From NCBI GenBank assembly GCA_021228405.1, contig JAJQRF010000016.1:1-64000 (forward strand): 64,000 nucleotides of DNA. The letters are read 5' to 3'. Below are positions 50,490 to 64,000 of the stretch, in pieces; the stretch's first letter is position 1, and each line of letters opens with the position of its first letter. Under the pieces are notes generated by a model. It was given only the letters and a program-made list of their open reading frames with translations, was not told where the DNA came from and searched no databases. A program made the translations under genes and the position numbers. This DNA is from Pyrinomonadaceae bacterium. GTDB taxonomy: Bacteria; Acidobacteriota; Blastocatellia; Pyrinomonadales; Pyrinomonadaceae.

Positions 50490-51578
50490 ATGTTGAAACA
50501 AAATATGAATTCTAAAATTTTGCTCACAATTTCGCTTTTCGTGCTTGCGACGGGAATTTTTGCGCAAAGCGGACGCAATAAACCGGCGGAATCGCCTTCG
50601 CCGACACCGACACCGCGCCGCGTTGTTTATTCGCCGACCGAACCGATCAACGATTATCCTTCCCCTAATTCGACACCGCCGAAAACACCTATTAAAAAAG
50701 AAACGAATGACGATACGATTACGGTCGAATCCAATCTCGTGCCCGTTCCCGTTTCGGTTTTGGATGCAAACGGTGTGAGCGTAACGAATTTGAAATTGGC
50801 GGATTTCACGCTCGAAGTTGACGGGCAAACGGTCGAGATCGGCGAAGTTACGCGCTCGGAAACGCCTGTCAGGTTGGCACTTTTATTCGATAATTCGTCG
50901 AGCGTGAGCATTGCCCGCGAGTTTGAAAAAAAGGCGGCGATCAGGTTTTTCAAACGCGTCATTCGTCCCGAAAAAGATTTGGTCGCGCTTTTTTCGGTCG
51001 CGACGGCTTCGCGATTGGAGCAACCGTTAACGAAAAATACTTCGCAATTGACCGATGCGATCGAGATGTTTCCGAATCCTGAAGGCGCGACCGCTTTGCT
51101 CGACGGAATCATCAAAGCCGCCGAATATCTGCGCGATGCGCAAGGTCGTCGCGTCGTCGTGATAGTTTCGGACGGCGACGATACCGTCAGCGATTCGACG
51201 CTCGAGGAAACGATGCGTTCACTGCAACTCAATAATTGTCAGGTTTATGTCGTCAAAACGACGGATTTTGAAAACTACAAACGCACCGGGCAACGCGGCG
51301 GAAACGCTAATATTCGCCAGCTTGCCGCCGAACGCCGAATGCAGGAAATCGCCTCACAAACGGGCGGCGCGGTTTATTCGCCGATCGACGAAAAGGAACT
51401 CGACGCGGCTTTTATCCAGATTTCCGCCGAACTCGCCCAGCAATATATTTTGAGTTATTACCCCGAAGACGATGCCGGCAAACGCGGGCAATTTCGCACG
51501 ATCAACCTGACCGTTAAAAACCGCGAAAATCTTTCCGTCCGCACCAGAAAAGGTTATTACGTGCCGAAACGCAATTGA
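50490..51578 (+). CDS. Secreted VWA-domain protein, acidobacterial VWFA-related family
   Basis: The 362-residue product has a signal peptide (KILLTISLFVLATGIFAQS), a Pro/Thr/Ser-rich spacer (SPSPTPTPRR), then a short N-terminal module (VPVPVSVLDANGVSVTNLKL and DFTLEVDGQTVEI) and a von Willebrand A domain with the metal-binding DNSSS (in LALLFDNSSSVSI) and VVIVSDGDDT. This is the layout of the VWFA-related acidobacterial domain family. Extracellular adhesion or complex assembly is likely. ATG 50505 is an alternative start. Confidence 0.9.
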   Translation: MLKQNMNSKILLTISLFVLATGIFAQSGRNKPAESPSPTPTPRRVVYSPTEPINDYPSPNSTPPKTPIKKETNDDTITVESNLVPVPVSVLDANGVSVTNLKLADFTLEVDGQTVEIGEVTRSETPVRLALLFDNSSSVSIAREFEKKAAIRFFKRVIRPEKDLVALFSVATASRLEQPLTKNTSQLTDAIEMFPNPEGATALLDGIIKAAEYLRDAQGRRVVVIVSDGDDTVSDSTLEETMRSLQLNNCQVYVVKTTDFENYKRTGQRGGNANIRQLAAERRMQEIASQTGGAVYSPIDEKELDAAFIQISAELAQQYILSYYPEDDAGKRGQFRTINLTVKNRENLSVRTRKGYYVPKRN

Positions 51579-53579: not shown

Positions 53580-56500
53580 ATGCGAAACAGGCTCTTCCCG
53601 TTGTTCGTAGTGTGCTTATTGTGTGTTTTTTCGGCTCACGCGCAAAATGTTATTGAAAAAGAATCGAGTCTTATTTTGAGTGAAAAATCGGCTCAGGCGG
53701 AGATCGTGATCGAAAATCCTGCGCCGCGTTTCGATTTAAGGATCGAACTCGAAATTCTCGACACGAAAGATCAGATTCGGGCAAGCAAAACTCAGGATTT
53801 GCGAATCGAGAAAGGCAAAAAAACTTACAAAATCCCGCTTGTTTGGAACGATCTCACTAAAGATTTCGATGAAAGAATCGATTGGTTTCGGTTTCATTAC
53901 AAAATTGGGGAAAAGGAAGGTTTCGTTTCGCTTTCCGAACTCATCAAAGATATTTTCGTGATTCGCGTTGCTGCGGCAAAGCAGGTTTTTCCGGGTGAAA
54001 CTCAAACCGTGCGCGTGCGCGCCGTTCATCCGGTGACGGATTTGCCCGTCAAAAATGTCAGAATCGACGGCGTGATCGAAATGGAAATTGACACCGAAGC
54101 GGAAGACGACGAAGTTAACGTGAAGGCAAAAGCCGAAACCGATTCCGAGGGGTTTGCGGTCTTAAACTTTAAGATTCCCGAAAATATCAAGATCGAAGAT
54201 GCCGATCTGGAAATTGAAGGCAGAAAAAACGGAATCTTTCGTTCGGTTTCCGAAGATTTCGATAATGATTCGGGAAAAGGCAGAGTTTTGCTGACGACCG
54301 ACAAACCGATCTACCAGCCCGGACAGGAGTTTAAAGTTCGCGGACTTTATTTCGATGCAAATAATACGGTTGTAACTAACAGCGAACTCGAATTTAAGAT
54401 TTACGATCAGGAAGACACCGTTTTGTTCAAGGAAACGGTGAAAACTTCCGAATTCGGCATTGCTTCCGTTTCGTGGAAAATTCCCGATAATGCCAAATTG
54501 GGCAATTACCGCGTCGAGATCGATGCCGAAAACGATCTGAGCGAAGATAACCTTTCATTCAAAGTTTCGCGTTACGATCTGCCGAATTTTGCCGTTACCG
54601 CAAAGCCCGACAAAACCTTTTACCTGCCCAATGACAAGCAAGCCGAAATCGCCGTGACCGCCGATTATCTTTTCGGAAAACCCGTTATCAAAGGGAAAGT
54701 GCGCGTGGTTCAGGAAAACGAAAGAAGCTGGAACTGGCGTTTGCAAAAATACGATGTCACGGAAAAAGGCGTGTTTGAGGGCGATGCCGACAAAGACGGA
54801 AAATATATCGCGAAAGTCGATCTGGAGGATGAATTTGCCGATCTGCTGGATGATAGGTGGAGAAATTTTGAAGATTTGCATTTTGCGGCTTACTATACCG
54901 ATCTGACGACGAACCGCACCGAACAAAAACGCTTCGACGTGCGCATTTCAAAAGAACCGATCCACATTTATTTTATCGGGAAAACTTACGAACTGAGTCA
55001 AAAACTGCCGATTTCGGCGTATGTTTCGACGTTTTATGCGGACGGAAGCCCGGCGGTTTGCGACGTTGAGATAAAGGGCAAAAATGACGACGATGCGGAA
55101 TTTAAGATTTTACAGCGTTTGAAAACGAATTCGTTCGGTGCGGGAAAACTATTTTTCGAGCGACCGGCTTTTGAAAGCGCGAGTGACGATCTCGATCTGC
55201 AAATAGTTGCGCGTGATAAAAACGGGCAAAAAGGAACATACCGGCGCGAAATCGAATATTACGACGATACGGAGGGTTTGAGCATCGAAATTGAAAAAAC
55301 CATCTTCAAACCCGGCGAAAGCGTCAAAATCGACATCGTTTCATCGAAGAAGGAAGGCTACGTTTACGTCGATGTCGTTAAGGATTGGACGGTTTTGGAA
55401 TCTTTTCTGGTCAAATTAGCCAACGGGAAAGCAAATCTGAAAATTCCATATCACCCGACATTCAAAGGCGAATTGACGGTCGGCGTTTACAAGGACGAAG
55501 ACACGGATTATTACAGTCCCGAGGTTCGTGCTTCACGCGGAATTATTTTTCCGGCACAGGAAAATCTGCGCGTCGACGCAAAATTTGAAAAATCCGTTTA
55601 CAAACCCAATGAAGACGGAACGATCAATTTTTCATCGCTCGACGGGGCGGGAAAACCGATTGAAACCGCGCTCGGTGTCGTGATTTTCGATAAAGCCGTC
55701 GAAGAACGAGCGCGGACCGATGCCGAATTCGGCAGTTATTTCAGCCGCTATTCATATTTTTTAGGCTATCACAAATCCTTCGGCGGCGTGTCGCTCAAAG
55801 ATTTGAATGGGCTCAATCTTTCCAAAAATATTTCGCCCGAATTACAGCTTGTTGCGGAAGTAATGCTTTCCAATAACTACTTTTATCCGCGCATTTATCA
55901 AAGCTGGCTAAATCACACGGAAGCAAAAAGTCTGTATGCGGAATTTTTCAAAAAACAGTTTACACCGATCGAAGAAATGCTGAAAAAACATTTCGAGAAA
56001 ACGGGCGAAAATCCGATCGATGAAAGTTCTCTGCGCGAGATTTTGCGTAAAAACGGTTTCGATTTAGACAAGATACGCGACGTTTGGGGCAACATTTACC
56101 GACCTGTTTTCACGACCGACAGAACGCAGAATATTCTGACCTGGAAAACCTCCGGCGCGGACGAAACTTTCGGAACGCAGGACGATTTCGACATTTCGAC
56201 ATCGAGTTTTTCCTATTTTCAACCGATCGGCAAATCCATCGATAAAGCCGCTGAAAACTACTATCAACAAACCGGGAAATACATCCGCGACATCGAAACC
56301 TTACGCACCGAACTCGCGAAGCAAAACATCGATCTCGGCAAGCTGAAAGACCGCTGGAATCGGGATTATGAGATTTATTTTGAAGTTTCGGGCGCAAATT
56401 ATGTAATCCGGTTTTTCAGCCTCGGCGTAAACGGGGTGCGCGAGCCGAATTATTGGAATCGTGACGATTTCGACATTTGGAAAACATCGCAGAATTATTT

Positions 56501-59500
56501 CTATAAAACCGAGCAAAAAATAGTCGAAATTCTCAATCAAAATGTAAATAACGGCAAACGTCCGTTTCCGAAAGATGCCGGGGAATTTCAAAACCTTTTG
56601 AGGGAAAACGATTTCGCGTTGGAAAATATCAAAGACGGTTACGGCAGAAATGTTTTTCTCACTTCAAACCGTTATTCGCGTTATGCGGATAAAACCGTCA
56701 TCGAAAACGGCAAACAGAAGATCACGCCCGTGACGGAAGAGGTTATCAATTTCAGTCTTTATACGAAAGGCGCGGACGGTGTTCTTTCAAGCGACGATTC
56801 GGTTTTGGCGATGTTTTCGGGAATCGTGATGGAACAATCGAAGGAATCCGATTTCAGGAAAACCGAAGTCAAAACGATCGGCTTTGCGGGCGAGCAGGGC
56901 GCGATTCGCGGAACGGTTTCCGATTTGCAAGGTGCGGCGGTTTTCGGCGCGTCGGTAAAAGCCACGAACGCAAGTGATTCGACGAAAATTTACAATGCAA
57001 ATACCGATGAGCAGGGAAATTTTGTGATCGCCAACCTGCCCGCGGCAAAATACGATCTCCGCATCGATGCAAGCGGATTTAAGTCTTTCGTTTACCAGAG
57101 TCTTGAAGTCAAAGCGCAAAATATTATTGAAATAAAAGCAATGCTTGAGGTCGGAGGTGTCAGCGAAGTCGTCAATGTTACGGGAAGCGTTGATGAGTAT
57201 GCAGTGAACGCGAGTACCTCTACGAACGTCACCATTGAACAGATTCAGCAATTACCTGTAAACGGAAGAAGTTTTTCTTCAATCTTAAAGCTTGCGCCGA
57301 CAAAACCGGAAGCGATGGCAGGGCGATCGAAGGATGATGAAACGGATGATTCGCCGAATTCAACGCCGCGTTTGCGCGAATATTTTCCTGAAACCCTGCT
57401 TTGGAATCCTGAAGTCATCACCGACAAAAACGGTAAAGCCGAAGTGAAATTCAAACTTGCCGACAACATTACGACGTGGAAGCTCTACACGATCGCTTCG
57501 ACCAAAAAAGGCAAGATCGGCGTGACGGAAAAGGAAATCCAGGCGTTTCAGCCGTTTTTCGTCGATCTCGAACCGCCGAAATTCCTGACCGAAGGCGACG
57601 AGATTCATTTGCCGACGCAAGTTAGAAATTACACGGAAGCGAAACAAAAAGTTAATGTTTCGATGACGAAATCAGATTGGTTCTCATTTCTGAGTTCGGA
57701 AAAACAACAGGTCGAAGTCGCGTCGGGCGCGTCGGAAAATGCAATTTTCGGTTTCAAAGCGGTTTCGGCGATCAAGGACGGCAAACAAAAAGTTACGGCA
57801 ATCGCCGCCAGGGATTCGGACGCAATCGAAAAGCCTGTGACGGTGCGTCCGAACGGTCAGGAAATCGTCAAAACCGAAACGAGGCTTTTCACAAATCCGG
57901 CAACTTTCGACGTGAATTTTCCTGCAAATGCTCGATCGAAAACACAGAAGGCGGAACTCAAAATCTATCCGAATCTGATGGCGCACGTCACCGAATCGGT
58001 CGAAGGTTTACTGCAAAGACCTTACGGATGCGGCGAACAGACGATCTCTTCGACCTATCCGAACCTGATGATTTTGAAATTTACGCGCAGCGATTCAAAG
58101 CTTCGGCAGACGGCGCAGAAATTTCTCCAGAAAGGTTACGAACGCCTGATCGGTTATCAGGTCGCAAGCGGCGGCTTTTCATATTGGGGCGGCAAAGATG
58201 AAGCCGATATTGCCTTGACAGCCTATGCTTTACGGTTTTTGAACGATGCCGGAGCGTATATTACGGTCGATCCAGAAGCGGTCACGAAAGCGCAAAACTG
58301 GCTTATTTTACAGCAACGCGCTGACGGCGGTTTTACAAAAAAATACTACTGGGAAACCGCCGAAGACACGAACCGCACAAAAATTTTTACATCGTATGTC
58401 GCCCGAACGCTGGCGAGAATCAAAGCTGAAAGAAAAGATTCCGATAATTTGCAAACTGCCGCGCTCGATAAAGCCTTAGATTATCTGAAACGTCAAAATG
58501 CACGCATCGACGAGCCTTACGCGCTTGCGCTCTACGGTTTGTCCCTGCTCGACGCGGGCAAAACGGAAGAGGCGAATTCGGTTGCCGAAATTCTAACAAA
58601 GATGGCGATTCCTGAAAATAATTCGGTTTACTGGAAACTCGAAACCAACACGCCGTTTTACGGTTGGGGAACTGCCGGACGCGTCGAAACGACTGCTTTG
58701 GTAGTTCAGTTTTTAATAAAAATGCAGAAGGTTTCGGAAAACGAACAAAGAGCAAAGAGTAACGAACTAATTACAAAAGGCACGCTGTTTTTGCTGAAAA
58801 ACAAAGACCGTTACGGCGTTTGGTATTCGACGCAGACGACGATCAATGTGCTTGACGCTTTCTTAGCCGCGCTTTCGGACGAAAAACAAACGGCGGAAAA
58901 CCAGCAAATCCAAATTGCCTTGAACGGAGCAAATTTGCAAACGATCACGGTTTCGCCCGATCAGATCGCGCCGGTAACTGTGAGCCTGAACGAAAAACTG
59001 AATCCGAACGAAAATCGTTTGGAAATCAGTTCATCAACGAATTCGGCGGTGATGGCGCAGGTCGTGCAAAATCATTACATCGAGTGGAAAGATGCGGAAA
59101 TTTCGGGACAGAATACGAATAATTTGCGCCAGTTACAGCTTGATTACAAATGCGACAAACAGAACGTGCAAATTATGGAAGAGGTAAATTGTTCGGTCAA
59201 AGCCGAACGCGTCGGGTTTAAAGGCTACGGGATGTTGCTTGCCGAGATCGGAATTCCGCCGGGCGCGGACGTTTCGCGTGAATCGCTTCAAGCCGCGATG
59301 GATGCGGACTGGAGCCTGAGCCGTTACGACGTTTTACCGGATAGGATCATTATTTATATGTGGTCGAAAGCCGGCGGCACGAACGTCACTTTCAAATTCA
59401 AGCCGCGTTACGGCATCAACGCGCAAACGCCTTCGTCATTTGTCTACGATTATTACAACGAGGAAGCGAAAGCGACGCTCGCGCCTTTGAAATTTGAGGT

Positions 59501-59507
59501 GAAATAG
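53580..59507 (+). CDS. Alpha-2-macroglobulin family protein with GspG-like and TonB-plug-like insertions
   Basis: A 1975-residue exported protein (signal peptide LFPLFVVCLLCVFSAHA) with macroglobulin domains: VLLTTDKPIYQPGQEFKVRG near residue 238, A2M core YFPETLLWNPEVITDKNGK near 1267, and the thioester motif YGCGEQT with Cys1484 and Gln1487. A terpenoid-cyclase-like helical part (YLKRQNARIDEPYALALYG) and receptor-binding-like C-terminus follow. Two insertions are unusual. Residues about 800-1080 hold three repeats, each ending in a D-W-G-N-Y-type block like the GspG pseudopilin (DVWGNIYRPVF, DRWNRDYEIYF, DGYGRNVFL) with FSLGVNG-like strands. Residues 1107-1250 hold a carboxypeptidase-regulatory-like domain and NVTIEQIQQLPVNGRSFSSI, as in acidobacterial TonB receptors. 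Bacterial A2M traps attacking proteases covalently; this one likely does so in the periplasm or on the surface. Confidence 0.9.
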   Translation: MRNRLFPLFVVCLLCVFSAHAQNVIEKESSLILSEKSAQAEIVIENPAPRFDLRIELEILDTKDQIRASKTQDLRIEKGKKTYKIPLVWNDLTKDFDERIDWFRFHYKIGEKEGFVSLSELIKDIFVIRVAAAKQVFPGETQTVRVRAVHPVTDLPVKNVRIDGVIEMEIDTEAEDDEVNVKAKAETDSEGFAVLNFKIPENIKIEDADLEIEGRKNGIFRSVSEDFDNDSGKGRVLLTTDKPIYQPGQEFKVRGLYFDANNTVVTNSELEFKIYDQEDTVLFKETVKTSEFGIASVSWKIPDNAKLGNYRVEIDAENDLSEDNLSFKVSRYDLPNFAVTAKPDKTFYLPNDKQAEIAVTADYLFGKPVIKGKVRVVQENERSWNWRLQKYDVTEKGVFEGDADKDGKYIAKVDLEDEFADLLDDRWRNFEDLHFAAYYTDLTTNRTEQKRFDVRISKEPIHIYFIGKTYELSQKLPISAYVSTFYADGSPAVCDVEIKGKNDDDAEFKILQRLKTNSFGAGKLFFERPAFESASDDLDLQIVARDKNGQKGTYRREIEYYDDTEGLSIEIEKTIFKPGESVKIDIVSSKKEGYVYVDVVKDWTVLESFLVKLANGKANLKIPYHPTFKGELTVGVYKDEDTDYYSPEVRASRGIIFPAQENLRVDAKFEKSVYKPNEDGTINFSSLDGAGKPIETALGVVIFDKAVEERARTDAEFGSYFSRYSYFLGYHKSFGGVSLKDLNGLNLSKNISPELQLVAEVMLSNNYFYPRIYQSWLNHTEAKSLYAEFFKKQFTPIEEMLKKHFEKTGENPIDESSLREILRKNGFDLDKIRDVWGNIYRPVFTTDRTQNILTWKTSGADETFGTQDDFDISTSSFSYFQPIGKSIDKAAENYYQQTGKYIRDIETLRTELAKQNIDLGKLKDRWNRDYEIYFEVSGANYVIRFFSLGVNGVREPNYWNRDDFDIWKTSQNYFYKTEQKIVEILNQNVNNGKRPFPKDAGEFQNLLRENDFALENIKDGYGRNVFLTSNRYSRYADKTVIENGKQKITPVTEEVINFSLYTKGADGVLSSDDSVLAMFSGIVMEQSKESDFRKTEVKTIGFAGEQGAIRGTVSDLQGAAVFGASVKATNASDSTKIYNANTDEQGNFVIANLPAAKYDLRIDASGFKSFVYQSLEVKAQNIIEIKAMLEVGGVSEVVNVTGSVDEYAVNASTSTNVTIEQIQQLPVNGRSFSSILKLAPTKPEAMAGRSKDDETDDSPNSTPRLREYFPETLLWNPEVITDKNGKAEVKFKLADNITTWKLYTIASTKKGKIGVTEKEIQAFQPFFVDLEPPKFLTEGDEIHLPTQVRNYTEAKQKVNVSMTKSDWFSFLSSEKQQVEVASGASENAIFGFKAVSAIKDGKQKVTAIAARDSDAIEKPVTVRPNGQEIVKTETRLFTNPATFDVNFPANARSKTQKAELKIYPNLMAHVTESVEGLLQRPYGCGEQTISSTYPNLMILKFTRSDSKLRQTAQKFLQKGYERLIGYQVASGGFSYWGGKDEADIALTAYALRFLNDAGAYITVDPEAVTKAQNWLILQQRADGGFTKKYYWETAEDTNRTKIFTSYVARTLARIKAERKDSDNLQTAALDKALDYLKRQNARIDEPYALALYGLSLLDAGKTEEANSVAEILTKMAIPENNSVYWKLETNTPFYGWGTAGRVETTALVVQFLIKMQKVSENEQRAKSNELITKGTLFLLKNKDRYGVWYSTQTTINVLDAFLAALSDEKQTAENQQIQIALNGANLQTITVSPDQIAPVTVSLNEKLNPNENRLEISSSTNSAVMAQVVQNHYIEWKDAEISGQNTNNLRQLQLDYKCDKQNVQIMEEVNCSVKAERVGFKGYGMLLAEIGIPPGADVSRESLQAAMDADWSLSRYDVLPDRIIIYMWSKAGGTNVTFKFKPRYGINAQTPSSFVYDYYNEEAKATLAPLKFEVK

Positions 59508-59588: not shown

Positions 59589-61922
59589 CTATTCTCCTTT
59601 ATTTTCGTCCAAAACGATTTCGGGAAATTCACGTGCAAACTGTTCGCGCGGTTTGTTATCGATCTCGGCGCGCAAAACGCGTGTGCCGACGTTTGATTTG
59701 AAATTCCCGTTTTCGTCATACAGACGGCGATACTGCGCTGAATTTCTGATAACGCCTTGAATATATGCTTTGGTTTCTTTGAACGGAACGGCTTCGACAA
59801 ATTCATCCATTTCGGGCGGCAAACTTGCCCGCCACGGCGGAACTCTGCCGGGACCGGCGTTGTAAGCGGCGGCGACATATTCTATGCGTCCGAAGGCGTT
59901 GAACTGGTCGCGCATATACGCCGTGCCGAGTTCGATATTCAGTGCCGGATTGAAAAGCGTATTGCCGTCGATCGCCGTGTTCGCCGAACCATATTTCTTC
60001 GACATCATTCGCGCAGTCGGGACGAGCAACTGCATCAAGCCGTAAGCGTTTGCGCCCGATTTTGCACGCGGATTGAAAACCGATTCCTGGCGAATCAGAC
60101 CCGCGACCTGATAATGATCGAGATTTCGCGCTTTTGCCCATTTTTTGATGTCGTCCCAATTCGTCAGCGGGTAAAAAATATCCCATTCTTCCTGTCCCAT
60201 TTCTTCGGGATTCATCTGTGAATAATCGGGATAACTTTTCGCCAAAGCGAGCAATGCGCCGACGTTATCGCCTTTCAAACGAAAATGTTTTGCCAGCGAG
60301 AGATTGATCTTCGGACTGTTTGAAGCGGTTTTTTGCGCTTCCTGAAGCTCGTCGATCGCCCAATCGAAAAGCCCGACGGTTGAAAGTTCTTCCGATTTTT
60401 CGGCGCGTTCCAGTTCTTTGTTCGTTGCGGTTTCGGGCGCAACGGTGACGGTTTTTAAATTGGCAACCGCCTTCGGAATCAGCGAATTCGCGGGGAAATT
60501 CGGCGGCGTTTGGCATTGTCCGCGACCGCGCAAACTCGTCAGTCTTTGGAGAGCGAGATAGCCATACCAATTTGCCGCGTAGCGGTGCATAACGCCGTCG
60601 TAAAGCGCACAGGCTTCGGGAATTTTGTTGGCAAGTTCCGAATCACGCGCCGCCCAATATCCCGCTTTTCCGCGATTTGCCGTGTCTTTGTCCACGTATC
60701 GGGCGAGATGTTCGGTCAGCATTTGCGAACTTAATTGATAATTCTTCGCTTCGTGTTCGAGCCAGGCGAGTTCAAATTGCGCTCCCGCAACTTCGACCGC
60801 GTTAGGATATGCGGCAAGCGCGGTGCGGAAAAAGAATTGTTCTTCGAGTTTGTTTTTCGCGTCACGTGCCTGAAGCCCGGCGGCGGCGTAGGTTTTCGGG
60901 ATCAATTTGCTGTTCGGCAAGGTTCGGCGCATTTCTTCGACGACGGTTTTGGCATTTGCCCAAAGACGATTTTGAGCGTAACCGAGCACGAGTTGATAAT
61001 AGGCTTCGTCTTTTTCTTTAGCCGTCGCGGGAACGGCGAAAAATGCGCTTTGTGCATTCGGCATCTGCTTCAGATTTGAATAAGTGATGATTCTTTTCAA
61101 CTGGATTTGCGGCGAATTCACCGCGGGAAAATTTTGCAGAAGTGCGTCGAAGGATTTGGCGGCTTCGGCGTAATTTTTGGCAGAATAAAGCTTTTCGGCG
61201 CGGGTTTGGATTTCTTCCGCCGAATTCGGATTCAAATCCTGACCGAGCGAAACGAGTTTGGCTTCGGCTTCCTTTGCCGCATTTGTGCCCGCGCCGTAGA
61301 AATAAACCTTGCGGTAAAACTTTACCGCTTCGCCTTGATTCTGCGTTTGTTCATAGGCTTTTGCCGTTAAAAGAAGTGCGTCGGCGTTGTTTTTGTCGTT
61401 CAGTTCTTTCAGGAAATTCGGGATTTGCGCCGCGTTACCCGATGTCATCGCCGAATTTGCCCATAACAATCTCGATTCCCGAACGCGCAGTGAAGTCGGA
61501 AAATCATTGACCAGATTTACAAAAACGCTCATTGCTTCGGCGTGGTTTCCGAGCGATTGCAAGGCGCGTCCGCGAAGCCAGAGCGCATAATCGCCGAGTT
61601 CGGTCTTTTCCCTGAAAACGTTCGTATTCAATATCTGCGCCGCGCCGTTAAAATCGTTGTTTTCAAAGCGAATCCGAGCGCGGAGCAGTTTAGCGAGCGT
61701 GCCGCTTTTGGTTTTTGAGAAACGGTTTTCGATCTCCAAAACGACATTTTCGGGCGGCAATTTACCGTTTTTGGTCAAGTCGCGCAAAGTTTTCAGCGCG
61801 TCGTCTTCCGACATCGGACGCACGGCGGCGGAACAACTCGTTGTCAGAGGAATCAGGAAAAGAGCTATTGAAAAAAAGATGATCGTTAAAATTGAATATG
61901 AATCAAGGCGGTATTTTGACAT
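59589..61922 (-). CDS. Lytic transglycosylase, SLT type, with TPR-like superhelix (lipoprotein)
   Basis: The 777-residue protein starts with a lipoprotein signal (IIFFSIALFLIPLTTSCSAA, Cys in a lipobox). An alpha-superhelical part rich in TPR-like helices fills residues 40-590. The catalytic domain follows with Glu613 in RQESVFNPRAKSGANAYGLM and AAYNAGPGRVPPWR, as in Slt70-like enzymes, which cleave peptidoglycan to 1,6-anhydro ends. It should act in the periplasm, anchored to a membrane. The gene converges with the alpha-2-macroglobulin gene. Confidence 0.92.
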   Translation of the reverse strand: MSKYRLDSYSILTIIFFSIALFLIPLTTSCSAAVRPMSEDDALKTLRDLTKNGKLPPENVVLEIENRFSKTKSGTLAKLLRARIRFENNDFNGAAQILNTNVFREKTELGDYALWLRGRALQSLGNHAEAMSVFVNLVNDFPTSLRVRESRLLWANSAMTSGNAAQIPNFLKELNDKNNADALLLTAKAYEQTQNQGEAVKFYRKVYFYGAGTNAAKEAEAKLVSLGQDLNPNSAEEIQTRAEKLYSAKNYAEAAKSFDALLQNFPAVNSPQIQLKRIITYSNLKQMPNAQSAFFAVPATAKEKDEAYYQLVLGYAQNRLWANAKTVVEEMRRTLPNSKLIPKTYAAAGLQARDAKNKLEEQFFFRTALAAYPNAVEVAGAQFELAWLEHEAKNYQLSSQMLTEHLARYVDKDTANRGKAGYWAARDSELANKIPEACALYDGVMHRYAANWYGYLALQRLTSLRGRGQCQTPPNFPANSLIPKAVANLKTVTVAPETATNKELERAEKSEELSTVGLFDWAIDELQEAQKTASNSPKINLSLAKHFRLKGDNVGALLALAKSYPDYSQMNPEEMGQEEWDIFYPLTNWDDIKKWAKARNLDHYQVAGLIRQESVFNPRAKSGANAYGLMQLLVPTARMMSKKYGSANTAIDGNTLFNPALNIELGTAYMRDQFNAFGRIEYVAAAYNAGPGRVPPWRASLPPEMDEFVEAVPFKETKAYIQGVIRNSAQYRRLYDENGNFKSNVGTRVLRAEIDNKPREQFAREFPEIVLDENKGE

Positions 61923-61987
61923 TGAAAAACTCCGAAATTTTGATGCGAATTATGAAAATTATTTTGTCTTTGGGGCAAACAAAAATC

Positions 61988-62016
61988 TTCCAAAAAGAAA
62001 AATTCCGTTATATGAT
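61988..62016 (+). promoter_or_regulatory. Putative promoter of the VWA gene
   Basis: TTCCAA and TATGAT are separated by 17 bases, about 35 nt before the ATG at 62051. The -35 box is weak. It lies in the divergent gap to the lytic transglycosylase gene. Confidence 0.4.
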
Positions 62017-62050
62017 AGCAGAGAATTTGTTGATCTCAGGAGTTTTCAAG

Positions 62051-64000
62051 ATGAAAAAATCATTCCTTGCGCTCGTTTGCGCCTTTTGGTTCGTTGCAAA
62101 TGTCTTTTCGCAAACCCCGAATCCGACCCCGACACCACAGCCTGCCGACGATGATGACGTTGTTAAAATTTCGACTTCGCTGATTCAGGTCGATGTCACC
62201 GTGACGGACAAAAGCGGAAAGGTCATTTCCGATCTGAAGCCCGAAGAAATAGAGATTTACGAAAACGGCAAAAAGCAGGATATTTCAAATTTTTCGTTTA
62301 TTTCAAACCTCAAGAAAACGCCCGTGCCGCCCGTTGAAAGCGTGAACGGCAACGTAAACGTTCCCGTTCCGCCGCGCAATCTCAATTCTGAACAGGTGCG
62401 CCGCACGATCGCGCTCGTGGTCGACGATCTGACGCTTTCCTTTGAGAGCGTTTATTTTGTGCGCCGCGCTTTGAAAAAGTTCGTTGACGAGCAAATGCAG
62501 GACGGCGATCTCGTCGCGATCATTCGGACAGGCGCGGGAATCGGCGCACTTCAACAGTTTACGACCGACAAACGCCAACTTTACGCCGCTATCGAAAAGG
62601 TTAAATGGAATCCTGCGGGAAACGGCAGAATCGGTGCGTTTGCTCCGCTCGAATCCGTCACTTCCTTACCTCAAACGGGCAGTGAAGAGGAAGATTCGGA
62701 TACTTTACAAACCGATGCGGAAAGCGAACTAAACAATCTGCGCGAAAGCATTTTTGCGACCGGAACACTCGGCGCGATCAATTTCATCGTGCGCGGAATG
62801 CAGGATTTGCCGGGCAGAAAATCGGTTATGCTTTTGTCGGACGGTTTCCGAATCCTGACGACTGGCAACAGCGGTTTTCTTGAATCGTCGCGGGTTTTGG
62901 AGTCTTTGCGGCGGTTGGTCGATCTCGCTAATCGTTCGTCGGTGGTCATCTACACGATGGACGCGCGCGGATTGCAATATACCGGACTTACGGCGGCTGA
63001 CAATACCGACGGAAGAAGCGCGGAACAGGTCGAACAGGCTTTGAGCAACCGGCGCGCCGAGCTTTTCGATACGCAGGAAGGCTTGCGCTATCTGGCTCAA
63101 CAAACAGGTGGCATTTCGGTCGTAAACAACAACGATCTGAGCCAGGGAATTTCACGGATGCTCGACGATCAAAGTTACTATTTGATAGGTTATCAGCCTG
63201 ACGAGGAAACCTTCGACCCGAAAACGAGGCGATTTAATAAGCTTGCCGTTAAAGTAATTCGTCCGGGCGCGCGGGTTCGCTACCGCAGTGGATTTTTCGG
63301 AATTTCCAACGAAGCGATCGCCAATAAACCGACAACGAACCTGACTCCGGCGCAACAGATCAACAACGCGCTCACGTCGCCTTTTGCCGTGAACGACATT
63401 TCTCTGCGCTTAAATGCTCTGTTCGGTGCGGATGCCAAACAGCAGGTTTTCATCCGCTCGTTTTTGCACGTTAAGGGTGATAATCTGACTTTTACGGAAG
63501 GTGCGGACGGCAGTAAAAAAGCGGTTTTCGACGTGGTTGCGGTGAGTTTCGGCGATAACGGAATGATCGTTGACGAGATCAGTAAAACTTACACGATAAC
63601 CGCAAAAGATGACGTTCTAAAGGTCATCCGAACGAACGGATTTGTTTACGATTTTACGTTCCCGATAAAAAAATCGGGCGCATATCAGCTTCGCGTGGCA
63701 CTGCGCGACACGGTCAGCGGAAAGGTCGGCTCGGCGAATCAATTTGTCGAAGTTCCAAATCTGAAAAAAGAACGCTTGACGGTTTCGGGCATAATTCTGG
63801 AAAACATTTCGCTCAAGGAATGGCAAAGCCGGAGCGAAGGCAAACCGCCCGAAGTATCGCTCTCCGACCCGCAAACGGCAACGTCGCTTCGCCAGTTCAA
63901 ACGCGGAACCATCCTGAATTTCGGAACACAGGTCTACAACGCCAAACTCGACACTACGCGCAAACCCAATCTGACCTATCAAACCAGAATTTTCCGTGAC
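62051..64000 (+). CDS. Secreted VWA-domain protein, acidobacterial VWFA-related family (3' end outside window)
   Basis: The open frame runs for 650 codons to the window edge without a stop. A signal peptide (SFLALVCAFWFVANVFSQ) is followed by a PNPTPTPQPADDDD spacer, the short module DVTVTDKSGKVISDLKPEEI, and a von Willebrand A domain (TIALVVDDLTLSFESVYFV, LPGRKSVMLLSDGF). The metal-binding DxSxS is replaced by DDLTLS, so divalent-ion binding may be weak. C-terminal beta-rich modules follow from about residue 430 (NLTPAQQINNALTSPFA). AGGAG at 62038-62042 precedes the ATG by 8 nt. It is a longer relative of the 50490 gene. Confidence 0.88.
   Translation, partial: MKKSFLALVCAFWFVANVFSQTPNPTPTPQPADDDDVVKISTSLIQVDVTVTDKSGKVISDLKPEEIEIYENGKKQDISNFSFISNLKKTPVPPVESVNGNVNVPVPPRNLNSEQVRRTIALVVDDLTLSFESVYFVRRALKKFVDEQMQDGDLVAIIRTGAGIGALQQFTTDKRQLYAAIEKVKWNPAGNGRIGAFAPLESVTSLPQTGSEEEDSDTLQTDAESELNNLRESIFATGTLGAINFIVRGMQDLPGRKSVMLLSDGFRILTTGNSGFLESSRVLESLRRLVDLANRSSVVIYTMDARGLQYTGLTAADNTDGRSAEQVEQALSNRRAELFDTQEGLRYLAQQTGGISVVNNNDLSQGISRMLDDQSYYLIGYQPDEETFDPKTRRFNKLAVKVIRPGARVRYRSGFFGISNEAIANKPTTNLTPAQQINNALTSPFAVNDISLRLNALFGADAKQQVFIRSFLHVKGDNLTFTEGADGSKKAVFDVVAVSFGDNGMIVDEISKTYTITAKDDVLKVIRTNGFVYDFTFPIKKSGAYQLRVALRDTVSGKVGSANQFVEVPNLKKERLTVSGIILENISLKEWQSRSEGKPPEVSLSDPQTATSLRQFKRGTILNFGTQVYNAKLDTTRKPNLTYQTRIFRD

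What the first reader, a model, noticed from the sequence alone, without database searches (positions are those of the whole stretch)
55978..56820. Three GspG-like repeats inserted in an alpha-2-macroglobulin
Residues about 800-1080 contain three modules: a helix with LRxxLxxNxxDLxxLKD-like spacing, then D-W-G-N-Y, a strand, and SLGxxG followed by DDFDI or DSVL. This is the order seen in the C-terminal part of the type II secretion pseudopilin GspG. Alpha-2-macroglobulins are not known to carry such modules, so this may be a new way to anchor, polymerise or export the protease trap.
Basis: partly seen in the sequence, partly recalled or inferred. Interest (0 to 1): 0.72.

Follow-up and report, generated by a model that had tools for sequence, protein, structure and literature searches.

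The report
Pseudopilin-like domains inside a protease trap
A soil-bacterium relative of our blood protein alpha-2-macroglobulin carries, in the slot where such proteins hold their protease bait, three copies of a domain otherwise known from bacterial secretion pili, followed by a piece that looks like the start of an outer-membrane receptor; many related bacteria share the layout, so it is a real protein architecture, but what the extra domains do is still a guess.

Summary
The 1975-residue alpha-2-macroglobulin (A2M) at 53580-59507 (+) holds three tandem modules (55944-56189, 56214-56471, 56496-56804). They are related to the globular domain of the type II secretion pseudopilin GspG: a profile of 64 modules finds GspG as its five best PDB hits; hhalign against 18 acidobacterial GspGs gives 97.1%, while A2M windows clear of the modules stay at or below 0.8%; in the AlphaFold2 model (pLDDT 94.6) module 1 aligns best to GspG/XcpT/EpsG. 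They lack the pilin membrane helix. They sit in the MG6 slot that holds the bait or the anaphylatoxin domain in other family members, followed by a transthyretin-like domain and a stretch predicted disordered that resembles TonB-receptor plugs, just before the conserved 'TPRLREYFPET'. 68 of 70 slot-spanning ORFs have exactly three modules (found with a three-module query). The 'anchor, polymerise or export' idea is not supported. Best reading: a thioester protease trap whose bait slot was enlarged by a rigid, probably Ca2+-stabilised domain array that carries the bait; the array's role is inferred. New variant of a known kind.

The parts
53580..59507 (+). Alpha-2-macroglobulin-like protein, 1975 aa, closer to CD109/A2ML1/A2M than to bacterial YfhM
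   Evidence: Open frame; Pfam MG2, MG3, A2M_BRD, A2M, TED, A2M_recep; best PDB relatives CD109, A2ML1, A2M
53580..53645 (+). Sec-type signal peptide by eye, putative cleavage after A-H-A (about residues 1-22); no lipobox seen
   Evidence: Read from the sequence; 4 of 54 relatives have a lipobox-like pattern
54285..54566 (+). MG2 domain (residues 236-329)
   Evidence: Pfam E 1.2e-24
55278..55700 (+). A2M bait-region domain PF07703 (residues 567-707), ends in the first part of MG6
   Evidence: Pfam E 2.2e-5; model aligns to A2M-family structures from about residue 659 to 1375
55701..55943 (+). Linker-like stretch (LNK position), residues 708-788
   Evidence: Position between MG6 first part and module 1; length 70-91 in 27 homologues
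55944..56189 (+). T2SSG-like module 1 (residues 789-870; loop GADETFGTQDD)
   Evidence: Module profile E 1.2e-28 (the profile includes this module); AF2 model; best structural match GspG 3g20 Z 6.1
56214..56471 (+). T2SSG-like module 2 (residues 879-964; loop GVNGVREPNYWNRDD)
   Evidence: Module profile E 5.5e-24 (the profile includes this module); AF2 model; matches PilA1 Z 5.0 and PulG 5o2y Z 4.4
56496..56804 (+). T2SSG-like module 3, with a long beta-hairpin (residues 973-1075; loop GADGVLSSDD)
   Evidence: Module profile E 1.1e-10 (the profile includes this module); hhalign windows 82.5-86.0%; AF2 model; no GspG row over this part
56901..57125 (+). CarboxypepD_reg / transthyretin-like domain (residues 1108-1182)
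   Evidence: Pfam E 7.6e-16; model matches carboxypeptidase D TTR-like domain 5aq0 Z 10.3, 81 residues
57156..57362 (+). Candidate bait region: predicted disordered, hypervariable, TonB-plug-like tail with LPVNGRSFSSILKLAP (residues 1193-1261)
   Evidence: pLDDT under 50 over model 634-710 = residues 1193-1269; length 9-104 in 27 homologues; tails of 49 of 72 relatives match TonB-receptor ORFs, shuffles 0-4
57363..57407 (+). alpha'NT segment TPRLREYFPETLLWN (residues 1262-1276)
   Evidence: Aligns to human A2M ETVRKYFPETWIWD; mean pairwise identity 0.73, the highest of 11 stretches measured
57393..57665 (+). A2M domain PF00207 (residues 1272-1362)
   Evidence: Pfam E 1e-24
57975..58862 (+). 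Thioester domain (residues 1466-1761) with GCGEQ at 58026-58040
   Evidence: Pfam E 6.8e-43; motif position
59229..59477 (+). A2M receptor-binding domain (residues 1884-1966)
   Evidence: Pfam E 2.5e-8

Best explanation
This is a secreted or periplasmic thioester protease trap of the A2M family. The slot in its MG6 domain, which in A2M holds the bait region and in complement C3 the folded anaphylatoxin domain, is filled with a chain of folded domains: three copies of a T2SSG-type domain (the globular part of the pseudopilin GspG, without the pilin helix), then a transthyretin-like domain, then a disordered bait that probably came, with that domain, from the front end of a TonB-dependent receptor. 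Proposed working: a protease cuts the disordered bait (1193-1261), the alpha'NT segment just behind it is freed from its channel, the molecule closes and the GCGEQ thioester links to the protease, as proposed for other family members. The three modules are joined to the MG ring on the N-terminal side, so they would stay on the trap after the cut. They most likely act as a rigid spacer or docking surface, stabilised by Ca2+ as GspG is, that places the bait and limits or selects which proteases reach it. Shown by computation: the domains, their order, their place in the slot, their kinship with T2SSG domains, and their conservation. Inferred: cleavage site, Ca2+ binding, origin of the bait, and the role of the array.
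For: Kinship with GspG: the profile of 64 modules gives GspG as PDB hits 1-5, E 1.9e-4 to 1.5e-3 (in the three alignments shown the helix and DPWG blocks are in the same order); 38 of 64 modules match Pfam T2SSG at E<=1, best 8.3e-6; hhalign 97.1%, pairwise E 7.7e-11 over 71 columns, against 18 acidobacterial GspGs found by the Pfam model; over 42 windows of the A2M alignment the 6 lying on the modules give 82.5-94.7%, 2 edge windows 4.2 and 5.8%, the other 34 at most 0.8%. Structure: pLDDT 94.6, three times helix-helix-three strands; VIA-align ranks 1-5 are GspG/XcpT/EpsG on module 1, Z 5.4-6.1, 89-92 residues. Reciprocal: in 297 genomes the module profile at E<=1e-5 hits frames of 1134 aa or more and ten short ORFs; 8 of the 10 were scanned and all 8 reach the T2SSG cut-off. 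Slot: the 816-residue model aligns with A2M-family structures at both ends (e.g. 8s3o: 156 residues aligned between model 102 and 816, chain 555-805), which I read as MG6 with the insert between its halves; alpha'NT aligns to human A2M; PMC9352918 (passages) says MG6 is interrupted by linker and bait, that complement factors have ANA there, and proposes alpha'NT release from a channel as trigger. Bait: the one long low-confidence stretch, 1193-1269, 9-104 residues long in 27 homologues. Conservation: copy numbers; in a module tree the best clades hold 72, 62 and 72 of 74 first, second and third modules, so the triplication looks old.
Against: No bait cleavage, Ca2+ binding or trapping has been measured. 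The window's own modules do not reach Pfam's T2SSG cut-off. Foldseek has no match with E<=0.001 and no GspG among the 50 rows shown; GspG appears in the second-look aligner only, with Z below 8, which that tool warns can be a common arrangement, and no GspG row covers module 3, whose rows are other proteins at Z 3.2 or less. The 816-residue model is weak overall (pLDDT 76.5, pTM 0.49), so where the array stands relative to the ring is unknown. The Asp triad of the loop is complete by a simple pattern in 58, 34 and 42 of 72 modules 1, 2 and 3, and module 2 of this protein has Asn for the first Asp. No gene neighbour is widely shared. The loci were found with three-module queries, so copy-number counts lean towards three.
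Confidence: 0.58

Rival explanations
1. The modules dock the trap onto pili, pseudopili or a secretion machine, so that the A2M is anchored, polymerised or exported.
For: They are relatives of GspG. The genome has pilin-type genes: 12 N_methyl matches over the cut-off and T2SSF matches in two frames.
Against: No pilin N-terminal helix found in the protein (no N_methyl row at E<=10). No T2SSG match in this genome at E<=10. T2SSG in 4 of 16 genomes with three or more module matches against 71 of 297 overall. The protein appears to have its own Sec-type signal.
Confidence: 0.08
2. The folded insert is itself the cleaved, functional moiety, like the anaphylatoxin domain of C3: proteolysis releases a four-domain fragment that acts as a signal or effector.
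For: Folded domains occupy the same slot as ANA in C3 (PMC9352918 passages).
Against: Release needs a second cut on the N-terminal side; the linker there has a steady length (70-91) and ordinary conservation (0.30), unlike the bait. No ANATO row at E<=10.
Confidence: 0.12
3. The insert is a passive, neutral expansion: mobile domains landed in a loop that tolerates insertions and have no role of their own.
For: T2SSG-type and CarboxypepD_reg domains occur in other proteins of this phylum and genome. One-, four- and zero-module relatives exist.
Against: Copy number is three in 68 of 70 spanning ORFs (with the search bias stated); between homologues the modules (0.30-0.37) are as conserved as the bait-region domain (0.33), while the disordered stretch is 0.26 with length 9-104.
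Confidence: 0.16

Closest known systems
GspG/T2SSG pseudopilin globular domain (PF08334; PDB 3g20, 1t92/5o2y, 2kep)
   Same: Helix-helix-three-strand fold, DPWG turn, S-x-G-x-D...DD loop where GspG binds Ca2+, profile match in the same order
   Different: No prepilin leader or transmembrane helix, shorter stretch between the second helix and the DPWG turn, three copies inside another protein, found in genomes without a T2SSG match
Eukaryotic-type A2M, CD109, A2ML1
   Same: MG domains, alpha'NT RxYFPET, thioester GCGEQ, receptor domain
   Different: The linker-plus-bait stretch (about a hundred residues in human A2M, recalled) is replaced by about 550 residues with four folded domains
Complement C3/C5 with ANA domain
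   Same: Folded domain in the MG6 slot just before alpha'NT
   Different: ANA is a small helical disulphide-rich domain (recalled); here pseudopilin-type and transthyretin-type domains, and a disordered stretch remains as likely bait
Bacterial YfhM-type A2M (ECAM, Salmonella A2M)
   Same: Bacterial, thioester, disordered bait
   Different: 13 domains and a membrane anchor (PMC4498604 passages); ranks below CD109/A2M/C3 for this protein; no such insert in the passages read
TonB-dependent receptors of the same phylum (CarboxypepD_reg + Plug + OMP barrel)
   Same: CarboxypepD_reg domain followed by LPxNGR...LxPG plug start
   Different: Here the plug is a fragment and there is no barrel

Membership tests
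GspG pseudopilin (T2SSG) | Helix-helix-three-stranded sheet of the globular domain | tested here: met
   AF2 model three times H-H-E-E-E, pLDDT 94.6; VIA-align ranks 1-5 GspG on module 1, PilA1 and PulG rows on module 2; module 3 has the same element order but no GspG row
GspG pseudopilin (T2SSG) | Sequence profile relationship | tested here: met
   PDB profile hits 1-5; hhalign 97.1% with windowed control
GspG pseudopilin (T2SSG) | Pfam gathering score of the window's own modules | tested here: not met
   No T2SSG row at E<=10 for the protein or the region nor at E<=1 for module 1; relatives match, best E 8.3e-6
GspG pseudopilin (T2SSG) | Prepilin leader and N-terminal transmembrane helix | tested here: not met
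   Modules are internal; no N_methyl row at E<=10
GspG pseudopilin (T2SSG) | Ca2+ bound through loop aspartates | tested here: inconclusive
   D..DD in modules 1 and 3 here, N..DD in module 2; complete in 58/34/42 of 72 (simple pattern); binding itself not testable. Which Asp residues are ligands is recalled, not read
A2M thioester protein family | MG, A2M, TED and receptor domains in order | tested here: met
   Pfam
A2M thioester protein family | Thioester motif | tested here: met
   GCGEQ at 58026; among 69 module-bearing ORFs over 1700 aa, by a pattern: GCGEQ 37, GCAEQ 20, four other variants 1 each, none 8
A2M thioester protein family | Disordered, protease-cleaved bait before alpha'NT | tested here: inconclusive
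   Disorder and place predicted; cleavage not testable here
C3/C4/C5 complement factors | Anaphylatoxin domain | tested here: not met
   No ANATO row at E<=10
TonB-dependent receptor | Plug and outer-membrane barrel | tested here: not met
   No Plug row for this protein's tail at E<=10; 1 of 7 tails matches PF07715, E 0.003, below cut-off; no barrel

The most novel reading that the evidence does not exclude
A decoy trap: the bait is descended from the plug entry of the bacterium's own outer-membrane TonB receptors, so proteases that attack those receptors would cut the copy held by the trap and be captured; the three GspG-type domains would be a Ca2+-dependent arming or presenting device for that bait, so that the trap is set only outside the cytoplasm, where Ca2+ is high.
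Probability: 0.14. Interest if true: 0.82.

Novelty: new variant of a known kind. Interest (0 to 1): 0.62.

Why it matters
It shows a pilin-type domain detached from the pilus and reused, three in a row, inside an immune-type protease trap, in the one slot that decides what triggers the trap. That slot separates inhibitors (loose bait) from complement factors (folded anaphylatoxin domain); a bacterial family that seems to combine both, folded array plus loose bait, would be a third design and a natural test of which parts of the trigger are essential. The tail's likeness to TonB receptors raises the question whether baits can be copied from the proteins they protect.

Tried and rejected
Direct Pfam and NCBIfam scans of the window protein gave no T2SSG hit; weak hits such as SAM_Exu, UBA_NBR1_C and Clp_N over the module helices were set aside as short partial matches below cut-off. 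Foldseek against the PDB listed no GspG among its 50 rows and nothing at E<=0.001; VIA-align gave no GspG row over module 3. A pilus or export role was considered and rejected as main reading. A conserved gene neighbour was sought: apart from the A2M cluster itself the largest neighbour clusters occur in 9, 8 and 8 of 80 loci; two of these include the window's transglycosylase-like and recombinase-like genes (names by eye). A plug domain in the bait was tested: 1 of 7 tails matched Pfam Plug, E 0.003, below cut-off, and this protein's own tail did not match. The stronger evidence is the BLAST comparison; it used only 8 receptor ORFs, all chosen because they match this protein's segment, the E-values are for that tiny set, and in short baits the 62 residues reach into the end of the CarboxypepD_reg domain, so it shows likeness and not a measured distance. 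A tree of the A2M core (39 of 70 eligible rows, every second three-module row kept; quick method) put three of four rows labelled one-module, and one row labelled zero whose single module scores 8 bits, in one clade with support 100; the fourth one-module row is L117; many forks are open and one three-module row (L042) has a very long branch. No order of events is claimed. In one search the loop pattern found nothing in 4, 10 and 22 of 72 modules 1, 2 and 3; these count as incomplete. Dropped rows: one search used 33 ORFs (this protein and 32 of 57); one search sets 21 contig-cut ORFs apart from the 70 spanning ones; one search drops duplicates and ORFs under 1000 aa; A1 holds 64 of the 87 modules found, chosen by hand; A3 holds 23 rows; A4 leaves out one other pilin frame and two of 20 loci in which my pattern found no frame. 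In one search only up to 18 first-look candidates a genome were scored, so its counts are lower bounds.
Full report
What is there. The frame 53580-59507 (+) encodes 1975 residues. Pfam finds MG2 (236-329), MG3 (332-415), the A2M bait-region domain (567-707), CarboxypepD_reg (1109-1182), A2M (1272-1362), the thioester domain (1466-1761) and the receptor domain (1884-1966). The thioester GCGEQ is at 58026. The best-scoring solved relatives are CD109, A2ML1 and A2M, ahead of the bacterial YfhM type. The start of the protein reads as a Sec-type signal; 4 of 54 relatives have a lipobox-like pattern. Between the bait-region domain and the A2M domain lie about 550 residues; this stretch holds the three modules.

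The modules are real and repeated. A profile seeded with modules of this protein and one homologue, iterated over 33 hand-picked A2M ORFs, found three in 27 and one in 6. Of the 57 A2M-matching ORFs, 25 were left out: further copies of the same genes, contig-cut pieces, two truncated one-module ORFs, and four ORFs matching in the A2M core with no module. So modules mark one branch of bacterial A2Ms, not all. Among loci from named genome records, 68 of 70 ORFs spanning the slot have exactly three, one (L105) four and one (L117) two weak ones. These loci were found with an alignment that contains the modules, so they lean towards three; L074 and L075 are identical. By record title all but two of the 79 loci are Acidobacteriota or groups placed there (among them Pyrinomonadaceae, Blastocatellia, Bryobacterales, Terriglobia, Granulicella, Bryocella); L091 is labelled Actinomycetota and L133 Betaproteobacteria, possibly mis-binned. 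In a module tree the best clades hold 72 of 74 first, 62 of 74 second and 72 of 74 third modules, with 5, 3 and 8 other rows inside, so the triplication looks older than the spread of the family.

They are T2SSG-type domains. The window's own modules score below Pfam's cut-off and no T2SSG row appears for them, so the test was made with the family. Of 64 modules scanned one by one, 38 match T2SSG at E<=1, best 8.3e-6; the next family has 8. The profile of these 64 against 177,635 PDB sequences gives five GspG chains first (E 1.9e-4 to 1.5e-3), helix and DPWG...DD blocks in order in the three alignments shown; the best other protein has E 0.016. hhalign with 18 acidobacterial GspGs, found by the Pfam model and not by the modules, gives 97.1%. 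As a control the same GspG alignment was compared with 42 windows along the A2M alignment: the six on the modules give 82.5-94.7%, two at the edges 4.2 and 5.8%, the remaining 34 at most 0.8%. AlphaFold2 on residues 777-1087 gives pLDDT 94.6 and three times helix-helix-three strands. VIA-align puts GspG/XcpT/EpsG at ranks 1-5 on module 1 (Z 5.4-6.1, 89-92 residues, rmsd 3.3-3.9); PilA1 (rank 6) and Ca2+-bound PulG (rank 8) fall on module 2; module 3 has no such row. Foldseek alone showed no GspG among 50 rows. In 297 genomes of the phylum, 31 have a module-profile match at E<=1e-5 (lower bound); the frames hit are of 1134 aa or more, not each checked to be an A2M, and ten short ORFs. Eight of the ten were scanned and all eight reach the T2SSG cut-off; one is a full GspG with an N-methylation motif, the other seven have no such motif at E<=0.1.

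The slot. The 816-residue model (residues 560-1375) aligns with A2M-family structures at both ends, e.g. Salmonella A2M Z 13.8 with 159 residues aligned between model 100 and 816, and native CD109 Z 13.0 with 156. As only about a fifth of that span is aligned, I read it as MG6 with the insert between its halves. PMC9352918 (passages read) states that MG6 is interrupted by the linker and bait region, that complement factors have the folded ANA domain instead, and that alpha'NT, with conserved R732 and F735, is threaded through an MG2-MG3 channel; it proposes release of alpha'NT as trigger. Here 'TPRLREYFPETLLW' aligns to human 'ETVRKYFPETWIW' and is the best conserved of 11 stretches measured (0.73). 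So the trigger end is kept.

The bait. The model has one long stretch of very low confidence, residues 1193-1269, before and into alpha'NT. Across 27 homologues the segment matching 1193-1261 varies from 9 to 104 residues with 0.26 identity, while modules 1, 2 and 3 span 79-88, 80-93 and 92-119 and the transthyretin-like domain 85-87. The CarboxypepD_reg domain and this tail together resemble the start of TonB-dependent receptors: 33 further places in the own genome match the segment, most in frames of about 800-1400 aa, and two such ORFs that were scanned (one from this genome, one from G048) carry CarboxypepD_reg, Plug and an outer-membrane barrel. The last 62 residues before TPR match at least one of 8 such receptor ORFs in 49 of 72 relatives against 0-4 in 20 rounds of shuffling (all 8 were chosen for matching this protein); some tails keep phrases such as LPLNGRNVANLLSLQPG. 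Pfam Plug is reached weakly in 1 of 7 tails and not in this protein's. I read this as a bait that came from a receptor front end, with moderate confidence.

What the modules do. Supported by computation: fold, place, copy number, conservation. Inferred: in PulG, absence of Ca2+ misfolded the C-terminal region, and changing the Ca2+-coordinating aspartates of GspG impairs secretion (PMC6692295 and PMC10574481, passages). The loop's Asp set is complete by pattern in 58, 34 and 42 of 72 modules 1-3 (ligand identities recalled), so Ca2+ stabilisation is plausible for modules 1 and 3 here and less sure for module 2. As the modules are joined on the N-terminal side of the bait, a cut in the bait would leave them on the ring. 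A spacer or docking array that presents the bait fits best. A pilus role fits badly: no pilin helix, no T2SSG match in this genome although it has pilin-type genes, and T2SSG in 4 of 16 genomes with three or more module matches, as in 71 of 297 overall.

Known or not. Searches of the open-licence PMC library: A2M with Acidobacteria or pseudopilin (two of three terms) gave 8 papers, none on this by title and start of abstract; macroglobulin with T2SSG, carboxypeptidase regulatory-like or Acidobacteriota gave 2, of which PMC9793634 speaks of A2Ms in Patescibacteria without such domains in the passages seen and the other is on a fish-gut bacterium by title; macroglobulin, pilin and bait region gave none; with TonB none. 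Subscription papers and preprints were not searched. I therefore call it a new variant of a known kind. Confidence in the best explanation and in the novel case was lowered slightly on re-checking, for the missing structural row of module 3, the search bias in copy number and the choice of the receptor ORFs.

Noticed in passing
57252-57362 (residues 1225-1261) and homologues, e.g. L005, L058, L132: The presumed bait of many of these A2Ms reads like a fragment of a TonB-dependent receptor plug.
   Followed up: partly
L154, L157, L158, L162, L173: Short proteins with a single T2SSG domain and no N-methylation motif; L154, L157, L158 and L162 have lipobox-like leaders by eye: T2SSG domains seem to be used outside pili in this phylum.
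   Followed up: partly
L038, L039, L040, L041, L043: A2Ms with only one module, a CarboxypepD_reg-like domain and a shorter insert; L038, L039 and L040 have CFEQ at the thioester position.
   Followed up: partly
L105 (7183-13548): An A2M with four modules.
   Followed up: no
L034/L035 (G038 contig 112), L058: Neighbouring three-module A2M frames, three in G038 and two in L058.
   Followed up: no
own genome (G000): 33 further places match the CarboxypepD_reg plus plug-start segment, most probably TonB-receptor-like genes; another, distant A2M-like frame lies at C4:587063-587962.
   Followed up: no
50490-51578 and 61892-64000: Two VWFA-like proteins with proline-threonine-rich stretches flank the region; families assigned by eye only.
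   Followed up: no
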